Shown here one piece after another: positions 12,729-28,951 of a stretch of DNA of 45,848 bases (position 1 is the stretch's first letter; every line of letters begins with the position of its first letter). The translations under genes and the position numbers were made by a program. The stretch spans positions 1-45,848 of the forward strand of contig JAFQID010000002.1 in the NCBI GenBank assembly GCA_017397685.1, given 5' to 3'. The DNA is from Bacilli bacterium (lineage in GTDB: Bacteria > Bacillota_I > Bacilli_A > RF39 > UBA660). The notes beneath the pieces are model-generated. The model was not told the DNA's origin, made no database searches, and saw only the letters and a program-made list of their open reading frames with translations.

Positions 12729-12745
12729 TTCTTTGGGTGATAAAA

Positions 12746-13471
12746 ATGTATCTAGATGAACTTTTATTATTAAACTTTGCTATAGATTACTGTCTTCTAA
12801 GTACCTTATCAAAAATATTAAAAATAAATGTAACAAATAAAAAAATATTACTAGGTTCTCTAGTCGGAGAAATATCAATATTATATTTATTTTTAAACAC
12901 AGGCAATATAATTCTTTGGCTTTTTAAAATAACAGTAAGTTTAATAATGCTTCTTGTTTCATTTGGATATAAAGATAAAACATTCTTTTCAAACGCAGTA
13001 CTTTACTTTTATACAATATCATTTTTACTTGGTGGAATACTTTATTATTTTAAACTAGAAGACCTTTTAATAGAGTATAAATATTATATTTTATTAATAC
13101 CAATATTTATGAATATATATAAATATTTGACATATAATCTAAAAAACTATTATTCTCAAATATATAAGGTTGATATATATTTAAAATCAGGACAAATACT
13201 TCATCTTATAGGATATATGGATTCTGGAAATACATTAAACGAGCCATATACAAATAAAAAAGTAATAATAATAAACAAACAATTAGAAGAAAATTACTTC
13301 CTAGTTCCATACGAAACAATAGATAATCATTCGCTATTAAAATGTTTTACCCCTAATCGGGTCTACATAGAAGGAATAGGGGAAAGACAAGATGTAGTAG
13401 TAGGAATAATAAATAAAAAATTCAAAGGATATGATTGTTTACTAAACTATAATTTAATGGAGGAAAAATGA
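12746..13471 (+). CDS. spoIIGA: Sigma-E processing aspartic protease SpoIIGA
   Basis: A 241-residue protein with an N-terminal membrane half of about five spans (to residue ~130) and a C-terminal aspartic protease half. The catalytic Asp159 lies in GYMDSGNTL, matching the D-S/T-G-N motif of SpoIIGA, which cuts pro-sigma-E in the mother cell. It is shorter than the ~309-residue B. subtilis protein, mainly in the protease half. I chose ATG 12746 over an upstream GTG because GGTGA lies 5 bases before it and overlaps that GTG. The stop overlaps the sigE start (ATGA), so the substrate and the protease are translationally coupled. Confidence 0.93.
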   Translation: MYLDELLLLNFAIDYCLLSTLSKILKINVTNKKILLGSLVGEISILYLFLNTGNIILWLFKITVSLIMLLVSFGYKDKTFFSNAVLYFYTISFLLGGILYYFKLEDLLIEYKYYILLIPIFMNIYKYLTYNLKNYYSQIYKVDIYLKSGQILHLIGYMDSGNTLNEPYTNKKVIIINKQLEENYFLVPYETIDNHSLLKCFTPNRVYIEGIGERQDVVVGIINKKFKGYDCLLNYNLMEEK

Positions 13472-14148
13472 TAAAAAAAATATTAGAAAAGTTTTTTAAA
13501 AGAAATGATGTATTTTATTTAGGATCTTCAGATATTTTGCCGCCACCACTACCAAAAAACGAAGAAGAAGAACTAGTAAAAAGAAGTAATTTAGGAGACT
13601 TACAAGCTAGAAACAAACTAATAGAACATAACTTAAGACTTGTTGTATTTCTAGCAAAAAAATATGACAATACCGCATATGATTTAGAAGACTTAGTATC
13701 AATCGGAACTTTAGGACTTATAAAAGGAGTAAAAACATATAAACTAGATAAAAATATTAAACTTGCAACATATGCATCAAGATGTATAGATAATGAAATA
13801 TTAATGTTCTTAAGAAAAAACAAAAGAAAAAGTAGTGAAATAAGCTTTGAAGATTCAATAAACTTTGATAATGAAGGAAATGAATTACACCTTGAAGACA
13901 TTCTAGGAACGGATAATAATCTTGTAGAAAAAGAAGTTGAAGATGCAAATGATAAAATACTTCTAAAAGAAGAAATAAAAAAATTAAAAGGAAGAGATAA
14001 AGAAATAATAGAAATGAGATATGGCTTAAGTGGAAAAAAAGAACTTACACAAAAAGAAGTGGCCGATAAACTATCTATATCTCAGTCATACATATCAAGA
14101 ATAGAAAAAAAACTAATAAATAAATTAAAAAATCTCATGAGAATATAA
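13468..14148 (+). CDS. sigE: Mother-cell sporulation sigma factor, pro-sigma-E
   Basis: A 226-residue sigma-70 family protein. Residues 1 to about 17 form a short basic pro-sequence, followed by FYLGSSDILPPPLPKNEE, which matches the processing site and start of mature sigma-E. Region 2 (NLRLVVFLAKKYDNT, DLVSIGTLGLIKG) and region 4 (ELTQKEVADKLSISQSYISRIEK) are intact. It should direct mother-cell genes after SpoIIGA cleavage. It is coupled to spoIIGA by ATGA. Unusually, sigG does not follow; a type VII secretion locus intervenes. Confidence 0.96.
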   Translation: MIKKILEKFFKRNDVFYLGSSDILPPPLPKNEEEELVKRSNLGDLQARNKLIEHNLRLVVFLAKKYDNTAYDLEDLVSIGTLGLIKGVKTYKLDKNIKLATYASRCIDNEILMFLRKNKRKSSEISFEDSINFDNEGNELHLEDILGTDNNLVEKEVEDANDKILLKEEIKKLKGRDKEIIEMRYGLSGKKELTQKEVADKLSISQSYISRIEKKLINKLKNLMRI

Positions 14149-14183
14149 CAAAGTCGTCTATTTTAAATAGATGATTTTGTTTG
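14149..14183 (+). terminator. Terminator of the spoIIGA-sigE operon
   Basis: A 15-bp stem with two G-T pairs (14149-14163 with 14165-14179) and a minimal loop follows the sigE stop directly, then TTTG. It separates sigE transcription from the secretion locus. Confidence 0.8.
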
Positions 14184-14209
14184 CTATTTAAAAAGTTATA
14201 TGCTAAAAT
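14181..14209 (+). promoter_or_regulatory. Sigma-A-like promoter of the type VII secretion operon
   Basis: TTGCTA (14181-14186) and TAAAAT (14204-14209) are spaced by 17 bp, just after the sigE terminator and 27 bases before the first gene. This suggests expression independent of sigma-E. Confidence 0.6.
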
Positions 14210-14236
14210 TATTTATAGTAGAAAAGGTGAATATAT

Positions 14237-14491
14237 ATGAATAAATTTTTAATAACAGTTATTATACCAAGTATAGAAGCGGAGTATGACTTATTCATAC
14301 CAAATAATAAAAAAGTCGGTACAATTAAAACATATATATTAAAATCCATATCTTTTTTAACAAATAACACATATCAAAAAACTATAGATGAAGTTAAATT
14401 CATTAATAGATTAACAAACGAAGAATACGATAACGATAAATTTATTAAAGATACAAACATAAAAAATGGTACTAAATTAATAATCATATAA
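14237..14491 (+). CDS. yukD: YukD/EsaB-like ubiquitin-fold protein of the type VII system
   Basis: An 84-residue protein with a beta-grasp pattern: ITVIIPSIEAEYDLFIPNN, a central helix (VGTIKTYILKSISFL), then LTNEEYD and a C-terminal strand TKLIII after an NGT turn. EsaB/YukD proteins of Bacillota type VII systems have this size and fold and are cytosolic regulators or components. There is no C-terminal Gly-Gly, as expected for this family. It is first in the operon, 20 bases before essC. Confidence 0.85.
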   Translation: MNKFLITVIIPSIEAEYDLFIPNNKKVGTIKTYILKSISFLTNNTYQKTIDEVKFINRLTNEEYDNDKFIKDTNIKNGTKLIII

Positions 14492-14511
14492 AAGTATTGG
14501 GGTGATAGCTA

Positions 14512-17500
14512 GTGAGAGTTTCAATTATAAATAATAAAAAAATAGAAAACTTAATTTTACCAAATAAAATAGAGGGCACATACTGGATAAAAGACTATGA
14601 TGCAAGCGGAAATAAAACAAATCTTATATCAATCGAGCCTGAAGATAATAAATGGAAATTAATAAGTAATAAAGAATGTTTTATAGAAAAAAATGGTAAT
14701 AATAAGGATTTTGTATATTTAGAAAAAAATGAGTTCTATATTCTTAAAAATGGTGTAATGAACAAAACATTGCTTCTTTATTGTACAGAAATAGAATCAA
14801 AGTATTTAAATTATGATGCTGGAAAATATTTAGATACCGGTATTTTAATTGGTAATAATAGTGAGTGCCAAATAAAACATTCACTATTATCAGAAGTGGA
14901 AGCTAAAATAAAAAAAGAAAATGAAAATGTAGTTATTACTGATCAAGACTCAGATTGCGGAGTATACGTAAATAACCTTAAAATAAATAGAAAAACTATA
15001 CTTACAAATGGTGACACGATATTTATTGGTGGTCTTAAAATTATTTATAATATAAATAAAGATATATATGATCAAAAAACTTACTGCTTATCAATTAGAA
15101 ACGATGAAAAAGTAAATACATCTTTGCCTATAGTAGAACTTTCAAAACCTAAAAACAACGATTTTAAAGAACTATCAGAAGATATAGAGTTTCCTTTATA
15201 CGAAGAAAGAGAATACTTTCACAAAAAGCCAAGATTTGTAGCTACTATAGAACCGTTAAAAATGCATATAGATCATCCACCAGGCTCAGTACCAGAAGAT
15301 AAAATGCCAGCTTTGCTTACATATGGTCCAATGATTACGATGTCGCTTTCATCACTAGTAATAGGTTTTACAGCATTAAATAACGTACTAACAGGTAATA
15401 CATCTTGGGTAGCCGCAGCACCATCGCTAGTGATATGTTTAACAATGCTCGCAGGTGTTATAGTTTGGCCTATGCTAACAAGGGCATACATGAAAAAAAC
15501 TCGAAAAGAAGATGAAAAGAAAAAATTAGAAAAATATACTGAATATATAGATAAAAAAAGAAAAGCAATTATAGATGCTAAACTTGAACAAAAAAACTTA
15601 CTTAACAATAAATATCTTTCATCTTTTGATTCAAGTGAAATAATACTAAGGAAATATACTACACTTTGGGAAAGAAGAATAGAAGATATAGATTTTCTTG
15701 AAATAAACCTAGGAAATGGTTCATATCAAATGGCAATAGATATCGCATATCCAGAAGAACATTTTACTATGGATGAAGATAAACTAAAAGATTTAATGAA
15801 CAATCTTTATAAAGAACCTAAAATGCTTAGTGATGTACCTGTAACATATTCGCTTATAGATAACTTTATAACAGGTGTAATAGGATCTAACACATTAACA
15901 ACAGAGTATATAAAACAAATAATAATTCAAATACTAGCATTTCATAGTTATGATGATTTAAAAATAATAATGTTAATAGATGAAAATAGTGAAGAAAACT
16001 TTAAATTTTTAAAAAGTATACCACATATATTTTCTCAAGATAAAAGCATAAGATTCTTCGCAACTAACAGTAATGAATACAAAGAAGTTTGTTATCACCT
16101 AGATAAAATTTATAATGATAAAAAAGAAAAATTTGGAAATAATAAAATAAAAAATGAAGATTTAGATAAAACTTATTTAATTATTACAAATAGCTTTAAA
16201 AAAATTAGAGACTTTGACGTAATAAATAAAATCCTTGGTAATAAAGAATATTATGGTTTTAGTATGCTAATACTTGATGAAAAAGTAACAAACTTACCAA
16301 ATCAATGTAATTCATTCATAAAAATAGCATCTGATAAAGGTGAACTTCATTTTATGAATCAAGCAAGTAAAGATGCATATGTCTTTAATATTGATTTTGA
16401 AAAAACTATAAAATACGAAGAATGTTCAAGTGTACTTGCAAACATACCGATAGATACTAGTAATACAGAAGAAGGAAAATTACCAGAAAAGTTAAGATTC
16501 TTAGAAATGTATGATGTAGGAAAAGTAGAGCAATTAAACTCTTCATCTAGATGGGAAGAAAATAACCCTACAATTAACTTAGAAGCTCCAGTTGGAGTAG
16601 GTAAAAACGGAGAACTTATAACATTAAACTTACATGAAAATGCTCATGGTCCACATGGACTTATTGCTGGTATGACAGGTAGTGGTAAATCTGAGTTTAT
16701 ACTTACATTTATACTTTCAATGGCAATTAACTATAGCCCAGAAGAAGTTCAATTTATACTTATAGACTATAAAGGTGGAGGTTTAGCTGGTGCTTTTGAA
16801 AATACAGATTTAAAACTACCACATTTAGTTGGAACAATCACAAACCTAGACACAGTAGACATGAATAGAAGTTTTACATCGATAGAAAGTGAAATAAAAA
16901 GAAGACAAGAAATATTCAATAAAACAAGAGAACTTACTAGAGAAAGCACTATAGATATATATAAATATCAAAAAATGTATAGAGAAAAAATTGTAAATGA
17001 ACCAATATCTCATTTATTCATAATATGTGATGAGTTTGCAGAACTAAAAGTTAGTCAGCCTGATTTCATGGAACAATTAATAAGCGCGGCACGTATAGGA
17101 AGAAGCCTAGGTATTCATCTAATTCTCGCAACTCAAAAACCATCAGGAGTAGTAGACCCACAAATATGGAGTAACACAAGATTTAGAGTTTGTATGAAAG
17201 TCCAAGATAAACTAGATTCAAACGAAGTAATAAAAAGCTACGATGCAGCATTCTTAAAAAATATTGGTAGATTTTACTTCCAAGTTGGATATAATGAAAT
17301 ATTTGTCTTAGGACAAGCCGCATACGCAGGAGATGATTATAATCCAGCTGATAAAGTTAAAAAAACAATAAATACTTCTATAGATTTTATAGATAATATC
17401 GGAAGTATAATAAAAGAAACAAGCACTAAAGATAATACATTCATAATATATGAGCAACTAGGAGAAGAAAGCACAAACATAGTAAAATACTTACAAAAAA

Positions 17501-19155
17501 CAGCCGAAAGCAAAAACATAAACATAAAACCTTTATGGCTTCCTAAAATACCAAGTGAACTAAAAATAGAAGATCTAATATCAAAATACAATTATCAAAA
17601 AAAACCAAATACAATAAATATAGTTATAGGTGAATATGATATTCCAAGTAGTCAAAAACAAGCTCTTTTAACTCTTCCATTATCAAAAGGAGGAAATACA
17701 CTTATTTATGGAACGGTGGGTAGTGGAAAAGAAAACTTTATAACAACATTGATCGCATCATCCATGATTCATTATTCACCCAATGAAATAAATTATTACA
17801 TACTTGATTTTGGCGCAGGAACACTTAGAATGTTTAGAAATGCAAATATAGTAGCGGATACCATAACAATGGATGAAAAAGATAAACTAGAAAGTTTATA
17901 CAAAATACTAACTAAAGAAATAGAAGATAGAAAAACACTATTCTATGAATATAACGGAGATTATCAAACATATCTTAACCATAGTGGAAATACAATCCCA
18001 GCTATAATAGTAATAATAAATAACTATGAACAATATGAAGAATTATGTGAAGAATATAATGAAAAATTAAGTACATTAACAAGAGACGGTGCTAAATATG
18101 GAATATATTTTATTCTTACAGTATCTACGCCAGATGGAGTAAGATTCAAATTAAAACAAAACTTCCCAATGACATATTGTTTAACTCAAAATAAGTTAGA
18201 AGACTACTTTACAATACTTGGAAACACTAATAAAATTTATCCAAGCAAAATATTTGGCAGAGGAATTATAAAAACTGATAAAACATATGAGTTTCAAACT
18301 GCAAAAATATCAGACTCAAAAAATATAATAAATACAATAAAGTACATAAGTGAAGAATATAATAAAATATTTACAGAGGGTGCTAAAAGAATACCAGTAC
18401 TACCAAATATAGTAAATTACTTTGATATAAACACTAGTCAAAAACAAAATGAACTTATAATAGGTTTAGATAAACACTCTCTTGAAATAAGTAAGATAAA
18501 CTTGCATAAACAATTTATTACATTAATAAGTAGTATAGATCTTTCACTTACAACACCTCTAGTAAACAGCATTTCAAAACAACTAATAGTTAATCAAAAA
18601 GAACTAATAGTTATAAATGCTGCAAACTTAGAACTCGATCTAATAATTACAAGTAATCCAAATTATATAGAAAACGAATATAATCAAATATTTACTAATC
18701 TTTATAACTATGTAACAACTAATAATAATGAATATATTTCAAATAATTATGATAAAAGCATATTTAATAACATTCCTAAAACAACAGTAATAATAATTGG
18801 AATAAATGATTTTCAAACAAAACTTACAGAAGAAAATCAATCATTATTTAAAGAATTATTTACAATATCAAAACAACTAGGAATAATAAACTTTATATTC
18901 GTAGATAACGTTAATACTTTAAAGCAATATGAATTCGAAACATGGTATAAAACATCAGTTAATACTAATAATGGTATTTGGGTAGGAAGTGGAGCACAAA
19001 CTCAATACTTAATAAAAATATCAAACAAATTACAAGAGCTTAACGAAGAGTCAAAAGAAGGCTACTGTTTAGTAATAAAAAATGCAAATGCACAGTACGT
19101 TAAAATCGTAGAAAAATATGATTTGACAAACCAAGAAATTGGTGATAACATTTAA
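14512..19155 (+). CDS. essC: EssC/YukBA-type FtsK/SpoIIIE ATPase, motor of type VII secretion
   Basis: A 1547-residue protein. Residues ~95-185 form an FHA domain (ILIGNNSECQI, then NGDTIFIGGLKIIY). Two membrane spans lie at about 265-325. Three ATPase modules follow: D1 has Walker A GMTGSGKS at about 721-728 and Walker B FIICDEFAEL near 838-843; D2 has GTVGSGKE at about 1067-1074; the C-terminal D3 is degenerate. This is the EssC layout, which energises export of WXG100 and LXG substrates. Length is near the usual ~1480-1500. The start is GTG 14512 with GGGGTGA upstream. It is flanked by yukD and a WXG100 gene. Confidence 0.96.
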   Translation: MRVSIINNKKIENLILPNKIEGTYWIKDYDASGNKTNLISIEPEDNKWKLISNKECFIEKNGNNKDFVYLEKNEFYILKNGVMNKTLLLYCTEIESKYLNYDAGKYLDTGILIGNNSECQIKHSLLSEVEAKIKKENENVVITDQDSDCGVYVNNLKINRKTILTNGDTIFIGGLKIIYNINKDIYDQKTYCLSIRNDEKVNTSLPIVELSKPKNNDFKELSEDIEFPLYEEREYFHKKPRFVATIEPLKMHIDHPPGSVPEDKMPALLTYGPMITMSLSSLVIGFTALNNVLTGNTSWVAAAPSLVICLTMLAGVIVWPMLTRAYMKKTRKEDEKKKLEKYTEYIDKKRKAIIDAKLEQKNLLNNKYLSSFDSSEIILRKYTTLWERRIEDIDFLEINLGNGSYQMAIDIAYPEEHFTMDEDKLKDLMNNLYKEPKMLSDVPVTYSLIDNFITGVIGSNTLTTEYIKQIIIQILAFHSYDDLKIIMLIDENSEENFKFLKSIPHIFSQDKSIRFFATNSNEYKEVCYHLDKIYNDKKEKFGNNKIKNEDLDKTYLIITNSFKKIRDFDVINKILGNKEYYGFSMLILDEKVTNLPNQCNSFIKIASDKGELHFMNQASKDAYVFNIDFEKTIKYEECSSVLANIPIDTSNTEEGKLPEKLRFLEMYDVGKVEQLNSSSRWEENNPTINLEAPVGVGKNGELITLNLHENAHGPHGLIAGMTGSGKSEFILTFILSMAINYSPEEVQFILIDYKGGGLAGAFENTDLKLPHLVGTITNLDTVDMNRSFTSIESEIKRRQEIFNKTRELTRESTIDIYKYQKMYREKIVNEPISHLFIICDEFAELKVSQPDFMEQLISAARIGRSLGIHLILATQKPSGVVDPQIWSNTRFRVCMKVQDKLDSNEVIKSYDAAFLKNIGRFYFQVGYNEIFVLGQAAYAGDDYNPADKVKKTINTSIDFIDNIGSIIKETSTKDNTFIIYEQLGEESTNIVKYLQKTAESKNINIKPLWLPKIPSELKIEDLISKYNYQKKPNTINIVIGEYDIPSSQKQALLTLPLSKGGNTLIYGTVGSGKENFITTLIASSMIHYSPNEINYYILDFGAGTLRMFRNANIVADTITMDEKDKLESLYKILTKEIEDRKTLFYEYNGDYQTYLNHSGNTIPAIIVIINNYEQYEELCEEYNEKLSTLTRDGAKYGIYFILTVSTPDGVRFKLKQNFPMTYCLTQNKLEDYFTILGNTNKIYPSKIFGRGIIKTDKTYEFQTAKISDSKNIINTIKYISEEYNKIFTEGAKRIPVLPNIVNYFDINTSQKQNELIIGLDKHSLEISKINLHKQFITLISSIDLSLTTPLVNSISKQLIVNQKELIVINAANLELDLIITSNPNYIENEYNQIFTNLYNYVTTNNNEYISNNYDKSIFNNIPKTTVIIIGINDFQTKLTEENQSLFKELFTISKQLGIINFIFVDNVNTLKQYEFETWYKTSVNTNNGIWVGSGAQTQYLIKISNKLQELNEESKEGYCLVIKNANAQYVKIVEKYDLTNQEIGDNI

Positions 19156-19179
19156 TTAATAATAAAGGAGGAATAAGAT

Positions 19180-19476
19180 ATGGCAAAAATATCAATATCA
19201 CTAGATCAACTAAATACAATTGTAACAAAAATAAACTCATCAAGTGATGAAATAAACAAAACATGGACAACAATCAAAACAGATGAAATAGCAAAAATTC
19301 GCTCGTCATGGATAGGAACTGATGCTGAGGCATATATAGCAAAAGTTCTTGAAATGGATGCTGAAATGACAAAAGCAATCCAAGCATTAAAATTACTTGC
19401 AACAACTTATACAAAAGCAAGAGAAAGCATAGTACAAACACAAAACACTATTAAAAGTAGTGTAACAGGTTTATAG
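19180..19476 (+). CDS. esxA: WXG100 protein (EsxA-like) secreted by the type VII system
   Basis: A 98-residue helical hairpin protein with the central WXG turn (SSWIGTDAEAY, Trp46-Gly48), the hallmark of WXG100/ESAT-6 proteins. Length is typical. These dimerise and are exported by EssC, often as core components needed for other substrates. AAGGAGG lies 8 bases before the ATG. It sits 24 bases after essC and 9 bases before the large substrate candidate. The Y-x-x-x-D/E export signal is not obvious at the C-terminus. Confidence 0.95.
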   Translation: MAKISISLDQLNTIVTKINSSSDEINKTWTTIKTDEIAKIRSSWIGTDAEAYIAKVLEMDAEMTKAIQALKLLATTYTKARESIVQTQNTIKSSVTGL

Positions 19477-19485
19477 GAGGAAATT

Positions 19486-20859
19486 ATGGATAATAAAGTA
19501 TATGTAGATAGCGAACAATTAACCTCTGTAGCCGCAAGTATAAAGGTAAAAGCAAATAATATATTAAACATATTCCAAGGAGACTGCTCATCAGCAATAA
19601 TCCTAGGAAAAGAATGCTTGCAAGTAAGTGGACTAGATACAACAGCAATAATAAATTCTTTAAATAAAATATTTACAAACCTATCAACTAGAATAAACAC
19701 ACTTTCTGATTTCTTAACACAAAAAGTAGCAGGAGAATACGACCTAACAAGTCAATCAATAATAAATGCATTCAATGGAAACTTTGCAACAGAACTAGCA
19801 GCACTTCTAGGTTTAACAGTAGGTACAACAGTAGTACCAGGAGTAACAGGAAACGGAGCTGGAACAGCAGGTTCAACAGGTGGAATTGCAACTGGAATAA
19901 TAAGGCCATCTACTGGCGGGTCATCTGGAGGATGTTCTACATGTGTGCCAAGTGATACTCAAGACCAAGCAGAACACTTACGAACTAGCGGAACATCAGT
20001 TTGGTTATCAGAAGAACAAGTAAAAATGTTGGAAAAGAAAGGCTATAATATTATTAAAACTAGTAATTGTCCTGGTGATTCATGTTGGTATGAAATTAGA
20101 GCAAAAGATGGTGATTTATTATTAGGAGAAGAAGTTGAGGATGCTTTAGGTATAGGAACTCAAAGTAATAATGGGGGAACTGGAACTATTGCAAGTAATA
20201 ATGGAGTACAAACTCCAACTTCAACAGAAGATGAAGGTATAAAATCTCAAGAGATAAATGGTACAACAGGATTACTATTAAGTAAAAAAGAAGTTGCAAT
20301 ATTAAAAGCTAAGGGCTATGAAATAAATGAAAATGAACAGTTATTATGCGATCCAAATACGGGAAAATGCTATTATGAAGTAAAGTCAGATGGAAATGTA
20401 GTTGAATCAACTCAAGAAATTAATGACGCAGAAGACGCACTTAAAATAAATGAAACTTCCGCGTATTGGACTAGTTTAGGTGATCGAATTCAAAATCCAG
20501 CATCAAATGGTGTTGAAACATCTGCAGATGCTAAAATGAGCGAACTTGGTTGGACAAAAACAGCGGCCGGATATGTAAAAGGTGATAAAATATTAATAAA
20601 AAATAGTGAATTAGGGGCATCAGGTAGCTTAGATGATTTCAAATCAAAACAGGAAAAGTTGACTCAACAACAAAATGAAATTAATAGACAAGTTAGATCC
20701 GCATCATCATATCAACCAGTAAAAAGTGTTCAAGGAGACGGTTTTAAAAGTCGTGCAGAAAGCGGTTCAGGAAGCGGTTCAGGAAATAGTTCAAAAACCA
20801 CCACAACACCAAAAGTCACATATGATTCTGCAGCATTAGGTTTTGGAAAATGGTATTAA
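19486..20859 (+). CDS. Putative type VII substrate with WXG100-like head and Cys-bearing repeats
   Basis: A 457-residue protein. Residues 1-~110 are helical and resemble a WXG100/LXG head without a WXG turn. A Gly/Thr/Ser-rich linker follows (~115-150). Two ~57-residue repeats lie at 168-224 and 258-321: each reads T-x-x-x-L-S, V-x-x-L-x-x-KGY-x-I, C-x(4-6)-C-(W/Y)-YE and ends in DAL-x-I. A degenerate third unit covers ~323-375. The tail is Ser/Gly-rich and ends GFGKWY. No toxin domain is recognised and no immunity gene is obvious. The first third uses A-ending codons like its neighbours; from about 19,950 the codon bias becomes mixed, suggesting a replaced C-terminal part. Export is inferred from position. 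Confidence 0.7.
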   Translation: MDNKVYVDSEQLTSVAASIKVKANNILNIFQGDCSSAIILGKECLQVSGLDTTAIINSLNKIFTNLSTRINTLSDFLTQKVAGEYDLTSQSIINAFNGNFATELAALLGLTVGTTVVPGVTGNGAGTAGSTGGIATGIIRPSTGGSSGGCSTCVPSDTQDQAEHLRTSGTSVWLSEEQVKMLEKKGYNIIKTSNCPGDSCWYEIRAKDGDLLLGEEVEDALGIGTQSNNGGTGTIASNNGVQTPTSTEDEGIKSQEINGTTGLLLSKKEVAILKAKGYEINENEQLLCDPNTGKCYYEVKSDGNVVESTQEINDAEDALKINETSAYWTSLGDRIQNPASNGVETSADAKMSELGWTKTAAGYVKGDKILIKNSELGASGSLDDFKSKQEKLTQQQNEINRQVRSASSYQPVKSVQGDGFKSRAESGSGSGSGNSSKTTTTPKVTYDSAALGFGKWY

Positions 20860-20865
20860 TAATTT

Positions 20866-21180
20866 ATGCAATCAAACATCGAAATAGACACAAACTTACT
20901 TAAAACTGCTATCGAAAGCATAAATACTAAAATTAATGAAATAGAAATAATTTCTAATGAACTATCAACATTTAAACAAACATTTTATGCTTTAGAAGAG
21001 TATTCTGATAAGTTAACTAAAGATTATAATGATTTTGAAAATAGCATTACATTAGTTATAACAAAATTAAAAAAAGTTAATAATTTTATAACTATAAATG
21101 TTATAAATAATTATAATAAACTTGAAGAAAGTATGAGATTATCTATAGAAGATTTAAAAAATATTCTAAATAATTTATAG
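20866..21180 (+). CDS. Small helical WXG100-like protein without WXG motif
   Basis: A 104-residue, almost entirely helical protein (MQSNIEIDTNLLKTAIESI, then long Lys/Asn/Glu-rich helices). The size, the break near residue 45 (FYALEEYSDKL) and the place right after a substrate gene fit a small partner or chaperone of the Lap/WXG100-like type. The Trp-x-Gly turn is missing. It starts 6 bases after the previous stop without a clear ribosome site, so it is probably coupled. A terminator follows the stop. Function is inferred only from context. Confidence 0.6.
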   Translation: MQSNIEIDTNLLKTAIESINTKINEIEIISNELSTFKQTFYALEEYSDKLTKDYNDFENSITLVITKLKKVNNFITINVINNYNKLEESMRLSIEDLKNILNNL

Positions 21181-21206
21181 AACAAGGTTTTATTGCCTTG
21201 TTTTTA
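21181..21206 (+). terminator. Terminator of the first type VII operon
   Basis: AACAAGG (21181-21187) pairs with CCTTGTT (21196-21202) around an 8-base loop, followed by a T run. Confidence 0.85.
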
Positions 21207-21229
21207 TTGTGTAAAATAAAGTAATTTAG

Positions 21230-21258
21230 TTGAAAATCGAATAAAATTTTGATATAAT
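21230..21258 (+). promoter_or_regulatory. Sigma-A promoter of the second type VII-locus operon
   Basis: TTGAAA (21230-21235) and a perfect TATAAT (21253-21258) are spaced by 17 bp. The next start codon is 42 bases downstream with AGGAGG in front of it. Confidence 0.8.
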
Positions 21259-21298
21259 ACCACTAGTAAAAACAAGAGTTTTTATAGGAGGAAAGATT

Positions 21299-22981
21299 AT
21301 GTCAAACGATTATGACGATTATAGTTATGAAAATTATGAAGATGATAGCAAAGGAGTTGCTAAAAAAAGACTTATTATTGTTATTTTAGTAGTTGTAGCA
21401 ATAATAGCAATTATTTTATTATTGAAAGGATGTACAGGAAGAAGTACTAATAAACCAAATGATGACTTTTCATACGAAAATACTTTACTTCAAGCTGGTA
21501 AACTTTATTATGAAAATAACTCTCATACCCTTCCAACAGCTAAAGGGGAGTGCTCAACTGTAACACTAGAAACATTATTATCCTTGGGACTAATAAATGC
21601 TAATGAGTTTAACAATTGTAATAAAGAAACTACTTATGTAAAAGTGTGTATGATGGATGATAATAATTTACAGTGGACTCCATGGCTAACATGTACAAAT
21701 TATTCATCTGATACATTATATGATGCTGAAAAAGAAGGAACAGTATCAGAAGTTGTTAAAGATCAAACACTTATAACAAACTTTGCTTATTTACCACAAA
21801 AATATGTTGCTTCAGAAGATAATCTTGGAGAAGTAGAAGAATTATGGAAAGATGAAATAACATATGCAACATACAAAACATTAGCTAGCAATACTTACTA
21901 TAGATATAGAGATTTAGAATATATATGGAACATTAAAGTAAGAACATATTATTCATCAACTGGAAATAAAGATAATGCATCAAGTGTAAAAGAATACTAC
22001 ACTTCATCTCCAGCAAAAGGCTTTACTAAGAAAGATGATTCCGCTATAGCATATAAATGGTATACAGTTACTGGTGGAGAAAAAATATATGCACTTAATG
22101 AAAAAGGTGAAAAAAAACTTAGCGCAACACCAATAGAAGGTTATCCAAATAACGATGAAGGAAAAACAGTAAACTTCTATAGAACTAGAACAGTACAAAC
22201 TACTTATGCTCCAACACTTTATTATTCATGTGCTAAAAGTTCAACTAGTACTGATTATATAAATCAAACAGTAAAATGTGGTGAAGGACCTAATAGTACA
22301 CATACATACCAAGTAAAAACTTTCTATGCTTGTAATAAAGAACAACCATTAAAAGCTGTTTCAAAAGATACAGTATGTAAATTATATAGTGATTGGTCAC
22401 AGTATTCTACAAAATCATGTGGTAATAAATCTGATGTGTGTGAAGTATCGCCAAAAACATATTATTACTGGTATAAAGTAGATAAAAAAGAAGTAAGAAG
22501 TTATTATCCATCTAAAAGTAGCACAGCAAGTGGAGAAAAAGTATATTATACATCAGCTCCAGTAAAAGGTGCACAAAAAGATGAATCAACAAAAACAACA
22601 GCTTATAAATGGTACAAAGAATCAGATGGCCAAACAACTAAATACTATGCAGTATCTCCTCAGTCAGGAGCAACTAAAACTGATAAATCAAGATGGAGCG
22701 ATTGGTCTAAGTGGAGTTTAGATAAACCAGGATCTCTAGGAAACGCAGGAACAAGAAAAACTGAATCAAGAGTTAAAATAAAACTTCAAGAAATAAAAGG
22801 AGAAGCTACTGAAGAAGAATGGAAAAATCTATCAGAAGAATATGTAACTTTAGAAGAAATGATAAACATATTTAAAACTGAAAAATATGAAGTAGAAACA
22901 CTAAATGATATAAATAATAACGGAGAAATACGTTATCAAGTAAAAATGTTCATAAGAAACAAAAAAATAGGAGAAAAGTAA
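21299..22981 (+). CDS. Single-span membrane protein with repeated Tyr/Trp-rich ectodomain
   Basis: A 560-residue protein: an acidic cytosolic lead (~22 residues), one span (about 24-44) ending in KGC, then a large outer domain. The first outer segment (AGKLYYENN, LPTAKGECSTVTLETLLSLGLI) resembles the C-terminal part of minor pilins. Two ~48-residue repeats begin VRTYYSS and VRSYYPS at about 217 and 402 and share YYTS(S/A)P(A/V)KG and AYKWY. Three Trp motifs (QWTPW, YSDWSQY, RWSDWSKW) recall WSxW modules. Cys are numerous. It is first in its operon. Not a recognised EsaA, EssA or EssB. A surface-exposed part of the secretion system is a guess from context. Confidence 0.7.
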   Translation: MSNDYDDYSYENYEDDSKGVAKKRLIIVILVVVAIIAIILLLKGCTGRSTNKPNDDFSYENTLLQAGKLYYENNSHTLPTAKGECSTVTLETLLSLGLINANEFNNCNKETTYVKVCMMDDNNLQWTPWLTCTNYSSDTLYDAEKEGTVSEVVKDQTLITNFAYLPQKYVASEDNLGEVEELWKDEITYATYKTLASNTYYRYRDLEYIWNIKVRTYYSSTGNKDNASSVKEYYTSSPAKGFTKKDDSAIAYKWYTVTGGEKIYALNEKGEKKLSATPIEGYPNNDEGKTVNFYRTRTVQTTYAPTLYYSCAKSSTSTDYINQTVKCGEGPNSTHTYQVKTFYACNKEQPLKAVSKDTVCKLYSDWSQYSTKSCGNKSDVCEVSPKTYYYWYKVDKKEVRSYYPSKSSTASGEKVYYTSAPVKGAQKDESTKTTAYKWYKESDGQTTKYYAVSPQSGATKTDKSRWSDWSKWSLDKPGSLGNAGTRKTESRVKIKLQEIKGEATEEEWKNLSEEYVTLEEMINIFKTEKYEVETLNDINNNGEIRYQVKMFIRNKKIGEK

Positions 22982-22982
22982 A

Positions 22983-25148
22983 ATGGATAAAATGAGAGAA
23001 TTAGAAAACAGATATAACGAAACTCTTGCAAATGTTGATTTAAATAATTTACAAGAAGTAAGAAACGAAAGAATAAGAGAAATAATAATAGCTCTTGATG
23101 AAATTAAAAGACAATCATTTGAAACAATATCAGATTTATTAGTTGGAACAGCACGCTTAGATAATGGAAGATTTGCAAACAGAAACAATGTTGAATACGA
23201 TATAAATCAAATAGCGCAAATGACTTCTTCTGCAAACAATTTATCTGATAAAATATATGATTCTATACATTCATTAAGTATAGAAAGAACTAATAGACTA
23301 AGTGAAGAATGGGATAACTTATTAAATGAAGGACTTGAAAATATTAATATAAATGATCTTAATGAAGTAGGGTATTCAACTTTAAGAAATATAATAGATA
23401 GACTTGAAACATTAAGTTCAATGGTTGCCTCTGCAAAAGAAAGTGGAGAATTATCAGATGATGTATATGATAATTCATTAATGAATAATTTTGCTGATGA
23501 ATATATTGAAAAAATACAAAATATTATAAATGTAATAAGAGTTGAAGAAAGATTAAAAACAGAACAAGCATTAAATAGAATGCATAGAATAACAGATATA
23601 AATGGTCAAAGAACACTTATAGATAATCAAATAAGATTACTAGAAATTCAAATAGAAAACGAAACAAATAGACTAGCTGGACCTATCGCATCAGAAGTTA
23701 TAAGACAAGATATAAACTTTAATATCAATGACATGAAAGCAAGAATCGAAAGATTAAAACTTGCATTAGAAACTTATGATTTAGAAGAGTCACAGTTAAG
23801 AAGTGAAATAGACATATTTAAAAATGGTGGTAGTCTAAATATTTCTGAACCTACCGAAGAAAACGAAGAAGAAATTGTTAAATCTGAAGAGGCAAACAAA
23901 GAAGTAGCAGATTTTTCTGAATTTGATATAGATGAAGAACAAAAAGAAGAATTCAAAAAACTATTGGCAAAAGATAATGAAAATAAAGAAAAAAATGATG
24001 ATTATGAAAACTATATAATTAATAATAAAAATGCTAGAGAAACTATTGAAAAAGCTGAACATAATGAAGATGAAGAAATAAATAATGAGTCTGAAGAAGA
24101 TGAAGAAAAGAACGTAAACGTTACAAGATTAATTGATTCAGATGATGACAGCATTGAAATAGAAGGATCAAAAGGCAAAAGTGAAGATGAAGAAGTTCCT
24201 TATGCTATACCTAAAAATGAAGAAGCGTTAGATGCTGAATACGAAGAAGTTGAAGAAGAAAAAGATGATAAAGTAAAAATAACAGAGATCAAAAATCCTT
24301 CAAATAAACTATTATCAAAAGTAAAAGAATTATGGAAAAAAATACCAGGATGGATTAAAAAAACTACATTAATTGTTTTAGCAGTGTTAGGAGTAGGTGG
24401 TGCTATGAAGGGATGCGATGAAGGCAAAAAAGATAATACACTCGAAACAAATCCAAATAAACAAGAAGAAATTATAGATGAAGACCAAATTACAACAGAC
24501 GATGTATTAAATGATATGGGTGTAGAAATAGAAGACGAAGATATAGAAGAAGAAAAAGAACCGGAACAATGCCCTGGAGGCGTTTGTCCAACACCTGGTA
24601 AACCAAATACTGGTGGAGGCGGAGGGGGAACTACTCCAAACAAACCAACCACTCCTGATAAGCCAATTACTCCAGATAATCCGGATAAACCGGTTACGCC
24701 AGACAAACCTGTTATCCCAGAAGTAGAGCCAGATGCAGAAGAAAATATATATCTAAAACAAGATAACGGTGAGATTAATAACTTCGATGATTCACAAAAC
24801 CAAGGACCTTGGGAATACGGACAAATAAATGAAGATGGAACTGAAACAGTTTTAACCGCAGATGGAAACGAATATTTAGTAGATGATGATGGAAATGTTC
24901 TTGCTAGTGAACAAGCTGATGAAAATATAGGTAGAGATGTAAAAATAGATGGTGAAAATTACTTAGAAGTTCCTGAAGAAAACTTAGATAAAATAGAAGT
25001 AGAAAAACCAGAAGAAATAGAAAAAACTGGTGAGGAAGTTGTAATAACTCCATCTGAAGATGCACCAGAGTTTACATTTGATGAAATACCAAATGAAATT
25101 AGCGAAGATTTCTTAAATGAACTTTTAGGAACAGGAAGAAGTTTATAA
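22983..25148 (+). CDS. Coiled-coil, acidic, single-span membrane protein with Pro-rich outer part
   Basis: A 721-residue protein starting one base after the previous stop. Residues 1-~280 are predicted long coiled coils; ~285-430 are very acidic; a basic segment (WKKIPGWIKK) leads into one span (about 460-475) ending in MKGC. The outer part has a CPGGVC loop, a Gly run, Pro-rich repeats (TPDKP, about 550-575) and an acidic C-terminus. The layout (large cytosolic part, one span, outer domain) is that of EssB/YukC, but no sequence similarity is visible. It could link the cytosolic motor to the envelope. The preceding gene supplies the second span-KGC protein. Confidence 0.7.
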   Translation: MDKMRELENRYNETLANVDLNNLQEVRNERIREIIIALDEIKRQSFETISDLLVGTARLDNGRFANRNNVEYDINQIAQMTSSANNLSDKIYDSIHSLSIERTNRLSEEWDNLLNEGLENININDLNEVGYSTLRNIIDRLETLSSMVASAKESGELSDDVYDNSLMNNFADEYIEKIQNIINVIRVEERLKTEQALNRMHRITDINGQRTLIDNQIRLLEIQIENETNRLAGPIASEVIRQDINFNINDMKARIERLKLALETYDLEESQLRSEIDIFKNGGSLNISEPTEENEEEIVKSEEANKEVADFSEFDIDEEQKEEFKKLLAKDNENKEKNDDYENYIINNKNARETIEKAEHNEDEEINNESEEDEEKNVNVTRLIDSDDDSIEIEGSKGKSEDEEVPYAIPKNEEALDAEYEEVEEEKDDKVKITEIKNPSNKLLSKVKELWKKIPGWIKKTTLIVLAVLGVGGAMKGCDEGKKDNTLETNPNKQEEIIDEDQITTDDVLNDMGVEIEDEDIEEEKEPEQCPGGVCPTPGKPNTGGGGGGTTPNKPTTPDKPITPDNPDKPVTPDKPVIPEVEPDAEENIYLKQDNGEINNFDDSQNQGPWEYGQINEDGTETVLTADGNEYLVDDDGNVLASEQADENIGRDVKIDGENYLEVPEENLDKIEVEKPEEIEKTGEEVVITPSEDAPEFTFDEIPNEISEDFLNELLGTGRSL

Positions 25149-25167
25149 AAACTAATAGGAGGAAAGA

Positions 25168-25422
25168 ATGGAAAATATAACAAATCAAGTTATCTCACTT
25201 GCTAATGGAAAAAAGTATTATGTAATGCGTCAAGCACTTTATAGAGGTACTACATATCTATTAGCCGCTGGGGTTGAAGAAAATGAAGAAGATTTCACAG
25301 ATGAATTTACATTTCTAGAAGTAGTAATAGAGAATAATGAAAAATTCATAAAGGAAGTAAAAGATAATGAAGTATTAAAAGTTTTACTTCAAAATATTAA
25401 GATTGAAGATATCGAAGAATAA
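25168..25422 (+). CDS. Small cytosolic protein, DUF1292-like
   Basis: An 84-residue acidic protein: ISLANGKKYYVMRQALYRGTTYLLAAG, then FTFLEVV and a C-terminal helix. The beta pattern (gly-lys turn, 'Y-rGttYlla') resembles the small DUF1292/DUF1949-type proteins of Bacillota, but the match is weak. AGGAGG precedes the ATG. It ends the second operon of the type VII locus; a terminator overlaps its stop. No function can be given. Confidence 0.65.
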   Translation: MENITNQVISLANGKKYYVMRQALYRGTTYLLAAGVEENEEDFTDEFTFLEVVIENNEKFIKEVKDNEVLKVLLQNIKIEDIEE

Positions 25423-25445
25423 ATACCTTGAAAAAGGTATTTTTA
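25421..25445 (+). terminator. Terminator closing the type VII locus
   Basis: AAATACCTT (25421-25429) pairs with AAGGTATTT (25434-25442) around a 4-base loop, followed by T residues. It isolates sigG from read-through. Confidence 0.85.
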
Positions 25446-25448
25446 TTT

Positions 25449-25478
25449 GAATAAAAAATTAAAATAAAAGCCAATATA
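25449..25478 (+). promoter_or_regulatory. Candidate forespore (sigma-F/G) promoter of sigG
   Basis: GAATA (25449-25453) and CAATATA (25472-25478) are spaced by 18 bp, close to the known sigma-G pattern (GMATR and CATNNTA). No good sigma-A hexamers are in this gap. Forespore control is expected for sigG, so this fits, but AT-rich DNA makes chance matches likely. Confidence 0.35.
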
Positions 25479-25497
25479 TTTTTGAAAGGAATAATAT

Positions 25498-26271
25498 ATG
25501 GCAAAAAATAAAGTAGAAATAACTGGTTTAAACACATCAAACATAAAAGTCTTAAATAATGAAGAAATGATAGAATTATTTAACGAGTACAAACAAGGAG
25601 ATAAATCTGCAAAACAAAAACTAATCGAAGGAAACTTAAAACTAGTATTAAGCATTTTAAAACGATATCAAAATAGATGTGATAATATGGATGACTTATT
25701 TCAAATGGGATGTATAGGACTAATCAAAGCTATAGATAACTTTGACCTAGAATATGAAGTAAGATTTAGTACATACGCAGTCCTTATGATTGAAGGAGAA
25801 ATAAAAAGATACATTAGAGATAATAACCCGATAAGAATATCAAGAGGAATAAAAGAAAATGCATATAACATAATAACATTCAAAGAAAAATATTTTGAAA
25901 AAAATGGAAAATATCCTACACACGAAGAAATATGTGAAGAATTAAATATAAATTCATACGAACTAAATCTAGCACTAATGTCATTAAAAGAACCAATGAG
26001 TATATTTGATCCAATATATAACGATGGAGGAGACACCATATATCTACTTGACCAAATAGAAGATAAAAAATCATCAAATGATTTAAGTGATTTAATCGCA
26101 CTGAGAAGAGCTCTTTCAAAAATAAAGATGAGAGAAAAGAAAATAATAATAAAAAGATATCTAGTAGGAAAATCACAAACAGAAATAGCGCAGGAACTTG
26201 GAATAAGTCAAGCACAAGTATCAAGAATTGAAACGTCCGCTATAAAAACTTTAAAAAGATTAATAAGTTAA
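25498..26271 (+). CDS. sigG: Late forespore sigma factor sigma-G
   Basis: A 257-residue sigma-70 family protein. The sigma-G start NKVEITGLNTSNIKVL matches the family lead (NKVEI-x-G-x-x-T), which separates it from sigma-F. Region 2 (DDLFQMGCIGLIKAIDNFD, VRFSTYAVLMIEGEI) and region 4 (KSQTEIAQELGISQAQVSRIE) are complete. It switches on late forespore genes such as SASPs. AAAGGA precedes the ATG. It should follow sigE closely; here about 11.3 kb of secretion genes lie between them, each side closed by a terminator. Confidence 0.96.
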   Translation: MAKNKVEITGLNTSNIKVLNNEEMIELFNEYKQGDKSAKQKLIEGNLKLVLSILKRYQNRCDNMDDLFQMGCIGLIKAIDNFDLEYEVRFSTYAVLMIEGEIKRYIRDNNPIRISRGIKENAYNIITFKEKYFEKNGKYPTHEEICEELNINSYELNLALMSLKEPMSIFDPIYNDGGDTIYLLDQIEDKKSSNDLSDLIALRRALSKIKMREKKIIIKRYLVGKSQTEIAQELGISQAQVSRIETSAIKTLKRLIS

Positions 26272-26293: not shown

Positions 26294-26527
26294 ATGATGA
26301 AATTATCAGAATTACAAAGAAAAAATATAATAAATATAAGAGATGGCAAAATCGTAGGAAAAATAGTAGATGTAGAAGTTGATACTAACTCGGGATTATT
26401 AATTAAACTTATAATAGAAAAAGCACACTTAGTAAGAAATATATTTTCTAGTGAAGAAGATATAACTATAAAATTTACTCAAATAAAAAAATTAGGAGAA
26501 GACGTTATATTGATTGATTTAAATTAA
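26294..26527 (+). CDS. ylmC: YlmC/YmxH-family PRC-barrel protein
   Basis: A 77-residue protein. KLSELQRKNIINIRDGKIVGKIVDVEVD is a PRC-barrel beta unit as in YlmC/YmxH, small proteins coded next to sigG in many spore formers. The phrase 'D-G-K-I-V-G-x-I-x-D-x-x-x-D' is the family signature. There is no strong ribosome site, so it may be translated after sigG in one transcript; the ATG at 26297 is an alternative start. The presence of this neighbour shows that the usual sigE-sigG-ylmC order is conserved apart from the insertion. Confidence 0.85.
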   Translation: MMKLSELQRKNIINIRDGKIVGKIVDVEVDTNSGLLIKLIIEKAHLVRNIFSSEEDITIKFTQIKKLGEDVILIDLN

Positions 26528-26607
26528 TATACAAACTCTCCTTTTTATTATTGACGAATATTTGAAAAATATTTACTATAAGTTTACATAAAAATTATAC
26601 ATTTAAA

Positions 26608-26636
26608 TTGACACTTAAACATATGTGATATAAAAT
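26608..26636 (+). promoter_or_regulatory. Strong sigma-A promoter of the surface protein gene
   Basis: A perfect TTGACA (26608-26613) and TAAAAT (26631-26636) with a 17-bp spacer, about 48 bases before the ATG. Confidence 0.75.
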
Positions 26637-26683
26637 AAAATTGTAATTAATTTTTATACAAAATATAGAAGGAGGAATATTGT

Positions 26684-28951
26684 ATGAAGAAAATTATATT
26701 TAGTATATTCGTATTATTAATATGCAATATACCAAACGTATATGCTGCTGATATTTGGGATGGAACATCTGATTCAACATGGTATAATAATTCAAAAACT
26801 TCATTTGAAATAACAACGGCTGAAGAATTATCAGGATTAGCACAGTTAGTAAACTCTGGCGTTAATTTTGATGGAAAAAATATTATATTAAAGGAGGATA
26901 TTGACTTAAAAAACCATCCATGGTCACCAATTGGGAATTCTAGTTCTAATGTATTTTCTGGTAACTTTGATGGAGAAAATCACACAATAAGCAATTTAAC
27001 AGATGGAAATGGAAAAAGTGGACATATTGATACAGGTTCGTACGGTCTATTTGGTTATATAGCAAATACTAACAATCCATTAGAAATCAAAAATTTGAAC
27101 TTAACCAATGTAAATATCAAACAAACCTCATCTGGAAAAGGAGTAGGAGCACTAATTAGTTATGCCCATGAAAGCGCCGTAGGCTATACTATTAAAAATG
27201 TAAATGTTTCAGGAACAATTGAAGGCATCTATCATGTTGGAGGAGTAATAGGAAAAACATACTCAGGAGGAGAAATACTATTAGAAAATATTACTAATAC
27301 CGCAGACGTAACAAACAAAGGGTATGGTATGACTGGTGGAATAATTGGAATATTTTCTCATACAGGTTCTCTTGCAAAACCAAACGCAACAATAAAAAAT
27401 GTAAAAAATCAAGGCACAATATCAAATAAAACAACTAATACAACTTATACGTATTCAAATGCGATGCAAGTAAGTGGAATAATTGGAAATGTAAATAGTG
27501 CAAAAACAATCAATTTTATAGATTGTGAAAATACTGGTAAAATATCATCGCCAGGTTTAAGACAAATGTCAGGAATAGCAAATATTGAAAATGCGGAAAA
27601 TTTAATATTCGAAAATAATGTAAACAAAGGAAATATAGAGGCTACAAACTTTAATAATTATAACACTGATATGTCAACAAGTACACTAAATCACCTAGGT
27701 GGATTATTCGCAAACTCAAATGTTACGAAAAAAATATTAATAAAAGGAACAAATACTAACTATGGAACAATAGGTACATTAGATGGTGATAAAGTATACT
27801 CTGGAAACTATGCAGGTGGAATATTTGGTTCAATTAACTTTAACCAAAATAATATAACTATCGAACTTGAAAATGATGCAAAATTAGTTAATGAAGGAAC
27901 AGTATATTCAAAACAATATGCCGGAGGAATAGCGGGTATATATAAAGCTTCATCTAACATATCATCAGGTACACTAGAAAATAAAGGAGATATAAACGCT
28001 TTATATAATGGTAATAATGAAATGTCAGGTGCTGGAGGTATATTTGGAACAATAATTAACTTAACAACATCTGCATTAAGTAACGGATTTACCGCAACAG
28101 TTGAAAATAGCGAAATCAGTGCAAGTGGATATGGAGAAAATATTCATACTGGAAATGATAACGCGGTTGCCGCAGGTGGATATATTGGATACAATCAAGC
28201 ATTTAATATAAGCAACTCAAATATATTTATAATTAATTCAACTATAAACACAAATGCAAAAGACAATTCATATAACGAAGCATATTCAGGTGGTATATTT
28301 GGATTAATAAAACTAACTAGCGATAATCCAGAAGTTGGTTCCTTAAATAATTTAATAGTAAACAAAACCACTATAAACGGAAAATATGCTGGTGAAATAC
28401 TAGGCGCAGCATATGACTCATACTATGCATCTGGGAGAAACCTACTAAATGTTACTGGAAAAGGATTGATAAAAGAAAATGAAGTTAATTCTACTAATGA
28501 AGTATATGATAAGCATTTAGGAGTAAAAATAAATAAAGCATATATAACATTAGATATTATAGAAAAATACAAAGTTTACTTTGAAACAAACGGTGGAACT
28601 GAAAAAGAATATGAAACTGTAGATGTATATTCAAAAGTGAATAAACCTCAAAATATAGAAAAAGAAGGATATACATTAGATGGTTGGTATACAGATGAAA
28701 ACTTTGAAAATGAATATAATTTTGATAATAAAATAGAAAACGATATTACTTTATATGCTAAATGGAAAGAAATAGAAAACTCAAATCAAGATGAAACAGA
28801 TAAAGAAAATAGTGAAAATATAGAAAAACCAAACACAGAAGAAATAGAAAACCCACAAACTGGAGATAATATTTCTACAAGCATATTAATATTCGCTATT
28901 TCAATACTAGGATTATTAAGTAGTTCAGTATTATTAAAGAAAAATAATTAA
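26684..28951 (+). CDS. Cell-wall-anchored surface protein with GLUG-type repeats and an InlB B-repeat
   Basis: A 755-residue exported protein: signal peptide with a likely cut after VYA (about residue 21), a long beta-rich region with GLUG-like units (GVGALISYAH, HVGGVIGKT, YAGGIAG, SGGIFGLI), an InlB/Listeria-Bacteroides repeat at about 630-695 (YFETNGGTEKEY, GYTLDGWYTDENF, ITLYAKW) and a C-terminal sorting signal NPQTGD (about 723-728), hydrophobic span and KKNN. It should be anchored to the wall by sortase, whose gene is not in the window. An adhesin role is usual for this architecture. AGAAGGAGG precedes the ATG; it is a single-gene unit. Confidence 0.88.
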   Translation: MKKIIFSIFVLLICNIPNVYAADIWDGTSDSTWYNNSKTSFEITTAEELSGLAQLVNSGVNFDGKNIILKEDIDLKNHPWSPIGNSSSNVFSGNFDGENHTISNLTDGNGKSGHIDTGSYGLFGYIANTNNPLEIKNLNLTNVNIKQTSSGKGVGALISYAHESAVGYTIKNVNVSGTIEGIYHVGGVIGKTYSGGEILLENITNTADVTNKGYGMTGGIIGIFSHTGSLAKPNATIKNVKNQGTISNKTTNTTYTYSNAMQVSGIIGNVNSAKTINFIDCENTGKISSPGLRQMSGIANIENAENLIFENNVNKGNIEATNFNNYNTDMSTSTLNHLGGLFANSNVTKKILIKGTNTNYGTIGTLDGDKVYSGNYAGGIFGSINFNQNNITIELENDAKLVNEGTVYSKQYAGGIAGIYKASSNISSGTLENKGDINALYNGNNEMSGAGGIFGTIINLTTSALSNGFTATVENSEISASGYGENIHTGNDNAVAAGGYIGYNQAFNISNSNIFIINSTINTNAKDNSYNEAYSGGIFGLIKLTSDNPEVGSLNNLIVNKTTINGKYAGEILGAAYDSYYASGRNLLNVTGKGLIKENEVNSTNEVYDKHLGVKINKAYITLDIIEKYKVYFETNGGTEKEYETVDVYSKVNKPQNIEKEGYTLDGWYTDENFENEYNFDNKIENDITLYAKWKEIENSNQDETDKENSENIEKPNTEEIENPQTGDNISTSILIFAISILGLLSSSVLLKKNN

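What the first reader, a model, noticed from the sequence alone, without database searches (positions are those of the whole stretch)
14149..25497. A type VII secretion locus sits between sigE and sigG of the sporulation cluster
Seen: spoIIGA-sigE (12.7-14.1 kb) and sigG-ylmC (25.5-26.5 kb) flank yukD, essC, esxA, a large substrate candidate and two membrane proteins. Known: spoIIGA, sigE and sigG are adjacent in most spore formers. Both edges carry strong terminators and the locus has its own sigma-A-like promoters. Its codon bias matches the local strand pattern, so the insertion does not look recent. The locus could be a stable insertion hotspot or could be functionally tied to sporulation, for example by secretion across the engulfing membranes.
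Basis: partly seen in the sequence, partly recalled or inferred. Interest (0 to 1): 0.8.

Follow-up and report, generated by a model that had tools for sequence, protein, structure and literature searches.

The report
Pared-down secretion system beside spore genes
A small protein-export operon really does sit between two spore-control genes in this gut bacterium, but 12 of its 17 held sister species show the site without it, so it is most likely a passenger in a permissive gap rather than part of spore formation; the odder point is that it and its relatives lack the usual partner membrane proteins of such export machines.

Summary
In detail: spoIIGA-sigE, then yukD-essC-WXG100-substrate candidate-small helical gene, then two membrane genes and an 84-aa gene, then sigG-ylmC. 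The 11.3-kb interval is composite. The last three genes (21299-25422) lie between sigE and sigG in every other species of the genus whose interval can be read, without the T7SS. The T7SS operon (14237-21180) is there only in the window species, the earliest branch of the genus, bracketed by terminator-like hairpins at 14147 and 21179. Across the family the sigE-sigG gap is empty (8 genomes), filled with other genes (10, plus the genus) or broken up; only 2 of 81 EssC loci lie near sigE or sigG, and their EssCs are not sisters. sigG keeps its own sigma-F/G-like promoter, while the T7SS has a sigma-A-like one. Best reading: an ordinary vegetative secretion operon in a permissive spacer, no demonstrable tie to sporulation. 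Gain here versus loss in the sister branch is unresolved. More unusual: EssC, YukD and WXG100 are present, but EssA, EssB and EsaA are not detectable in the family, nor are the kinase/phosphatase/FHA genes of Clostridial relatives. That three-part complement is not among described subtypes T7SSa-j.

The parts
12737..13471 (+). spoIIGA, pro-sigma-E processing protease
   Evidence: TIGR02854 E 3e-28; synteny in all genus members read
13468..14148 (+). sigE, mother-cell sigma factor; left flank
   Evidence: NF006158 E 2e-91; 72-79% identity within the genus
14147..14181 (+). terminator-like hairpin after sigE; left edge of the T7SS operon
   Evidence: genus relatives also have a hairpin plus T-run just after sigE
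14181..14209 (+). sigma-A-like promoter (TTGCTA-17-TAAAAT, TG before the -10) for the T7SS operon
   Evidence: a consensus match only
14237..14491 (+). yukD/esaB-like, ubiquitin-fold component (TsxB)
   Evidence: relatives hit PF08817; AF2 pLDDT 95, ubiquitin fold; next to EssC in 40 of 42 family EssC loci
14512..19155 (+). essC, FHA + FtsK/SpoIIIE-type membrane ATPase (TsxC)
   Evidence: TIGR03928 961 bits; FHA PF00498; two PF01580 stretches; PDB relative B. subtilis YukB E 7e-111
19180..19476 (+). WXG100/EsxA-like protein (TsxA)
   Evidence: TIGR03930 E 2e-8, PF06013 E 6e-6, just below cut-offs; W-I-G motif
19486..20859 (+). 457-aa substrate candidate: helical N-terminus without signal peptide, Gly/Ser/Cys-rich repeats
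   Evidence: position after esxA; no family match; function inferred
20866..21180 (+). 104-aa helical protein, possible Lap/WXG100-like partner of the substrate
   Evidence: size, helical composition and position only; inferred
21179..21204 (+). terminator-like hairpin; right edge of the T7SS operon
21230..21258 (+). sigma-A-like promoter of the genus-wide cassette (TTGAAA-17-TATAAT, TG before the -10)
   Evidence: a comparable promoter lies upstream of the TM560 gene across the genus
21299..22981 (+). TM560: single N-terminal TM, large Cys/Tyr/Trp-rich beta-rich exterior domain; genus-wide cassette gene 1, not T7SS
   Evidence: 41-49% identical homologues at this site in all genus members read; AF2 pLDDT 83, no PDB fold match
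22983..25148 (+). TM721: acidic coiled-coil, single TM, Pro-rich exterior; genus-wide cassette gene 2
   Evidence: syntenic fast-evolving homologues
25168..25422 (+). 84-aa cassette gene 3
   Evidence: 49-58% identical homologues at this site in the genus
25449..25478 (+). sigma-F/G-like promoter of sigG (GAATA-18-CAATATA), approximate position
   Evidence: same motif upstream of sigG in 20 of 34 genomes against 4% of shuffles; alignment
25498..26271 (+). sigG, forespore sigma factor; right flank
   Evidence: NF006071 E 3e-101

Best explanation
The T7SS (14237-21180) is a self-contained operon, expressed vegetatively from a sigma-A-type promoter, that encodes a pared-down type VII exporter: the EssC ATPase pushes a WXG100 protein and probably the 457-aa substrate (with the 104-aa helical partner) out of the cell, with YukD as accessory. 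It sits in a permissive spacer between the sigE terminator and the sigG promoter. In this genus that spacer had also received a three-gene surface/membrane cassette. Because sigG has its own forespore-type promoter, DNA can enter or leave the spacer without disturbing the sigma cascade. The T7SS has no specific role in sporulation. Shown: gene content, genus and family comparison, EssC tree, conserved sigG promoter motif. Inferred: secretion activity, substrate role, sigma-A dependence, selective neutrality of the site.
For: In ten other genus members with the whole interval in one contig the order is sigE-TM560-TM566/721-s84-sigG with no T7SS; G087 and G089 show sigE running straight into the TM560 gene. 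In the family the interval is empty (54-335 bp) in 8 genomes, holds unrelated genes in 10 others besides the genus, and is broken up in several. Of 81 EssC loci read, only the window's and G019's have sigE or sigG in the DNA held, and those two EssCs are not sisters, so proximity arose twice. Several T7SS-bearing relatives have no SigE/SigG-level match at all (G005, G033, G043, G057). sigG carries GnATA-N18-CAATATA in 20 of 34 genomes versus 4% of shuffles; in B. subtilis read-through from spoIIGA-sigE is not required for sigG (PMC5942855). Hairpins bracket the T7SS operon.
Against: The window species is the deepest branch of the genus in a four-protein tree, so a T7SS in the genus ancestor lost once in the sister branch is as parsimonious as a gain here. 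Some other genus members (e.g. G090, G091) have their interval split across contigs. No expression data. The T7SS promoter is a consensus match. The chimera possibility was not tested with reads.
Confidence: 0.82

Rival explanations
1. The T7SS is functionally tied to sporulation, for example exporting proteins across the engulfing membranes.
For: Location between sigE and sigG; a second genus (G019) also has a T7SS about 2 kb upstream of sigG.
Against: Absent from the site in every sister species read; 79 of 81 EssC loci are not near sigE/sigG; present in family genomes without sigE/sigG matches; sigma-A-like, not sigma-E/F/G-like, promoter.
Confidence: 0.05
2. The 11-kb block (T7SS plus the two membrane genes plus the 84-aa gene) entered the genus ancestor as one unit and the T7SS part was later deleted in the branch leading to all other species.
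For: The window species is sister to the rest of the genus; the window EssC is sister to that of G080, so this EssC type was probably in the genus early.
Against: In G080 the same EssC type lies elsewhere, downstream of infC-rpmI-rplT; the T7SS part has its own flanking hairpins; a TM560-plus-coiled-coil pair exists in G032 at a contig end with no T7SS gene in the 7 kb held.
Confidence: 0.3
3. Assembly artefact: the T7SS was joined into the interval by misassembly or binning.
For: The genome is a 49-contig draft; no reads available.
Against: Two false joins would be needed inside one contig, both intergenic and same-strand; G+C and GC3 match; the closest EssC is from the same genus.
Confidence: 0.03

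Closest known systems
T7SSb (Bacillota Ess/Yuk system; S. aureus, B. subtilis)
   Same: EssC with N-terminal FHA and FtsK-type ATPase domains, YukD/EsaB, WXG100 protein
   Different: no EssA, EssB/YukC or EsaA/YueB match at the locus or elsewhere in the genome
T7SSf and other Bacillota subtypes of Garrett, Higginson and Palmer 2024 (PMC11217815)
   Same: EssB-less systems with TsxA, TsxB, TsxC; the Lachnospiraceae/Clostridia relatives found here carry PP2C and DUF6382-FHA genes like T7SSf
   Different: the window's family has none of the kinase, phosphatase or FHA genes recurrently next to EssC
T7SSg (PMC11217815)
   Same: few components besides TsxA, TsxB, TsxC
   Different: T7SSg ATPase lacks FHA domains and comes with TsgL and Tad pilus genes; not so here
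spoIIGA-sigE-sigG sporulation cluster
   Same: order and the sigG own-promoter logic as in B. subtilis (PMC5942855)
   Different: spacer carries two unrelated insertions here

Membership tests
Type VII secretion system (general) | membrane FtsK-type ATPase EssC/EccC | tested here: met
   TIGR03928 961 bits over cut-off 778
Type VII secretion system (general) | WXG100 protein encoded at the locus | tested here: met
   PF06013/TIGR03930 slightly below cut-off, W-x-G motif, next to essC; WXG100-like genes near 31 of 42 family EssC loci
Type VII secretion system (general) | ubiquitin-like YukD/EsaB | tested here: met
Type VII secretion system (general) | secretes a WXG100 protein | not testable with these tools
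   needs an experiment; organism known here only from a genome
T7SSb | EssB/YukC pseudokinase | tested here: not met
   PF10140: nothing over cut-off in 78 family genomes, nothing in 16 further genomes with EssC; B. subtilis control positive
T7SSb | EsaA/YueB | tested here: not met
   TIGR03929: none over cut-off, none in the window genome; control positive
T7SSb | EssA | tested here: not met
   PF10661: none in the window genome; one marginal hit in 78 inside a 550-aa frame
T7SSf | PPM phosphatase and DUF6382-FHA protein at the locus | tested here: not met
   no such gene in the window operon; no PP2C or FHA cluster recurs near family EssC loci, though present near Clostridial ones
sporulation-controlled gene set | sigma-E/F/G-type promoter upstream | tested here: inconclusive
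   by eye the T7SS upstream region shows only a sigma-A-like match; the sigma-F/G-like motif was scored only upstream of sigG; no sigma-E scan was run
mobile genetic element | integrase, transposase or target-site repeats at the edges | tested here: not met
   no recombinase gene in the interval; no shared repeat over 9 bp between the edges

The most novel reading that the evidence does not exclude
In this family of small-genome gut Bacilli the type VII exporter works with EssC as its only dedicated conserved membrane component (plus YukD and WXG100 proteins): a minimal T7SS not among subtypes a-j.
Probability: 0.45. Interest if true: 0.6.

Novelty: new variant of a known kind. Interest (0 to 1): 0.38.

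Why it matters
The location is a clear example of how a sporulation gene cluster tolerates large insertions, probably because sigG is transcribed on its own. If the lack of EssA/EssB/EsaA holds up, these organisms carry natural minimal T7SSs, which would make it testable which parts of the machine are essential for export.

Tried and rejected
Sporulation link through promoters: not found by eye; only sigG was scored for a sigma-F/G motif. Mobile-element signatures at the edges: none. The membrane proteins as EssB/EsaA substitutes: rejected as T7SS parts on linkage, because they occupy the site in species with no T7SS there; a role in trans is not excluded, since most genus members have an EssC elsewhere. 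Fold search of TM560 against the PDB: no match. PHROGs and PADLOC scans of the unknown proteins: nothing informative (PADLOC hits to EssC are shared ATPase domains). G019 as evidence for a conserved T7SS-sigG linkage: its EssC groups with other genera and its sigE-sigG interval is 37 kb with many other genes.

Full report
What is there. The window is contig 16 of a 1.27-Mb, 49-contig, 94%-complete AT-rich genome; by its relatives it is a small-genome gut bacterium of the Bacilli/Mycoplasmatota group (my inference is the order RF39 or a near one). spoIIGA and sigE end at 14148 and sigG starts at 25498. Between them: yukD, essC, a WXG100 gene, a 457-aa and a 104-aa gene; then a 560-aa and a 721-aa single-TM protein and an 84-aa protein. 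EssC is secure (TIGR03928, 961 bits). YukD was confirmed through its relatives and by a ubiquitin fold. No sequence family identifies the 457-aa and 104-aa proteins; substrate and partner are inferences from position and composition.

The interval is composite. Of 17 other genomes of the genus, ten have the whole sigE-sigG interval in one contig stretch (G058, G079, G080, G081, G082, G083, G084, G088, G092 and G093, the last with a sigE cut by the contig end); all read sigE-TM560-TM566/721-s84-sigG, about 3.8-4.1 kb, without T7SS. G087 and G089 also show sigE followed directly by the TM560 gene; G090 and G091 show the cassette before sigG but break near sigE; G078, G085 and G086 have no sigG match at that level. 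Only the window has the T7SS, between sigE and the TM560 gene. Two terminator-like hairpins (14147, 21179) bracket exactly that part. So the two membrane proteins are not part of the T7SS locus but a genus-wide cassette. A TM560 homologue followed by the start of a coiled-coil gene also lies in G032 at a contig end.

Family view. In 78 genomes of the family, sigE and sigG are almost adjacent (54-335 bp) in G070, G047, G039, G076, G016, G029, G007 and G037; carry 1-4.5 kb of different genes in G031, G020, G072, G067, G001, G026, G045, G028, G015 and G064 (sigG inverted in the last); and are far apart in G003, G019, G048 and G061; the rest are on separate contigs or lack the genes. The spacer is thus a place where DNA comes and goes. 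30 of the 78 have a full EssC, in varied places. In 81 EssC loci read with flanks (mean 18 kb, some cut by contig ends), only the window and G019 have sigE or sigG in the DNA held.

History. In the EssC tree (SH-aLRT, quick search) the window EssC is sister to that of G080 (57% identity) and the pair sits among EssCs of other Bacilli genera, not with the two EssC types common in the genus. G080 carries its copy downstream of infC-rpmI-rplT. A tree of SigE, SigG, SpoIIGA and YlmC puts the window species as sister to all other genus members. Gain in the window lineage and ancestral presence followed by one loss therefore cost the same number of events; I do not decide between them, though the other position in G080 and the self-contained operon lean to separate movement.

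Regulation. Upstream of sigG a motif GAATA-N18-CAATATA, resembling sigma-F/G promoters (consensus from my own knowledge), is kept across the genus and in much of the family: 20 of 34 against 4% of mononucleotide shuffles. The pattern was written after seeing the genus alignment, so the shuffle comparison is descriptive for the genus, and the 13 genus rows are related. The upstream regions of yukD and TM560 have sigma-A-like promoters with an extended -10; for TM560 this is conserved in the genus, for yukD it is a single match, and such matches are not enriched in the region. In B. subtilis sigG has its own promoter and read-through from spoIIGA-sigE is not required (PMC5942855). This explains why the spacer can be permissive; it is inference, not a measurement. 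RF39 members are predicted to sporulate by others (PMC10868615).

The T7SS itself. EssB (PF10140), EsaA (TIGR03929) and EssA (PF10661) give no match in the window genome and none of weight in the family, while B. subtilis rings as control. EssB is also missing in 16 further genomes with EssC at 34-57% identity. Recurrent neighbours of EssC in 42 family loci are YukD (40), WXG100-like genes (31) and DUF4176 genes (10); no membrane protein family recurs broadly, only one syntenic group of six loci. The Lachnospiraceae/Clostridia relatives have PP2C, kinase and DUF6382-FHA genes, as in published EssB-less subtypes (PMC11217815). The family's complement of A, B and C alone is not one of the published subtypes T7SSa-j. 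Absence rests on profile searches of draft genomes and could hide a very divergent partner encoded elsewhere. By eye the window FHA lacks the canonical Arg and His of phosphothreonine-binding FHA domains (not tested further).

Verdict. Observation confirmed. Hotspot idea supported, sporulation link not supported, grouping of the membrane genes with the T7SS not supported. Moderately interesting, mainly for the pared-down T7SS.

Noticed in passing
G000:C26:13983-18518 (L124): A second EssC in the same genome, 39% identical to the window's and of the type common in the genus, with YukD upstream and small helical genes downstream.
   Followed up: partly
window 21299-25422: Genus-wide three-gene cassette between sigE and sigG: a Cys/Tyr/Trp-rich surface protein with no PDB fold match, an acidic coiled-coil single-TM protein, and an 84-aa protein. 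Function unknown; conserved position next to sporulation sigma genes.
   Followed up: partly
window 26294-28951: In sister species ylmC is followed by lspA and rluD; in the window it is followed by a 755-aa surface protein with repeats and a PQTGD sorting-like motif, another rearrangement just beyond sigG.
   Followed up: no
L161-L162, L114 (G019:C11:22000-67850): sigE and sigG are 37 kb apart with a large T7SS cargo region (WXG100-like genes, DUF4176 gene, giant repetitive proteins) ending about 2 kb before sigG.
   Followed up: partly
L105, L109, L113, L117, L119, L121: In six family genomes the EssC locus keeps one place near rplM-rpsI, while other EssC loci lie at various housekeeping loci (infC-rpmI-rplT, rpoBC).
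   Followed up: no
L166:4646-9820, L167:729-9329, L173:5776-9663: Related T7SS loci carry giant (1300-2900 aa) repetitive proteins without Pfam domains, likely substrates; the window locus has only a 457-aa one.
   Followed up: no
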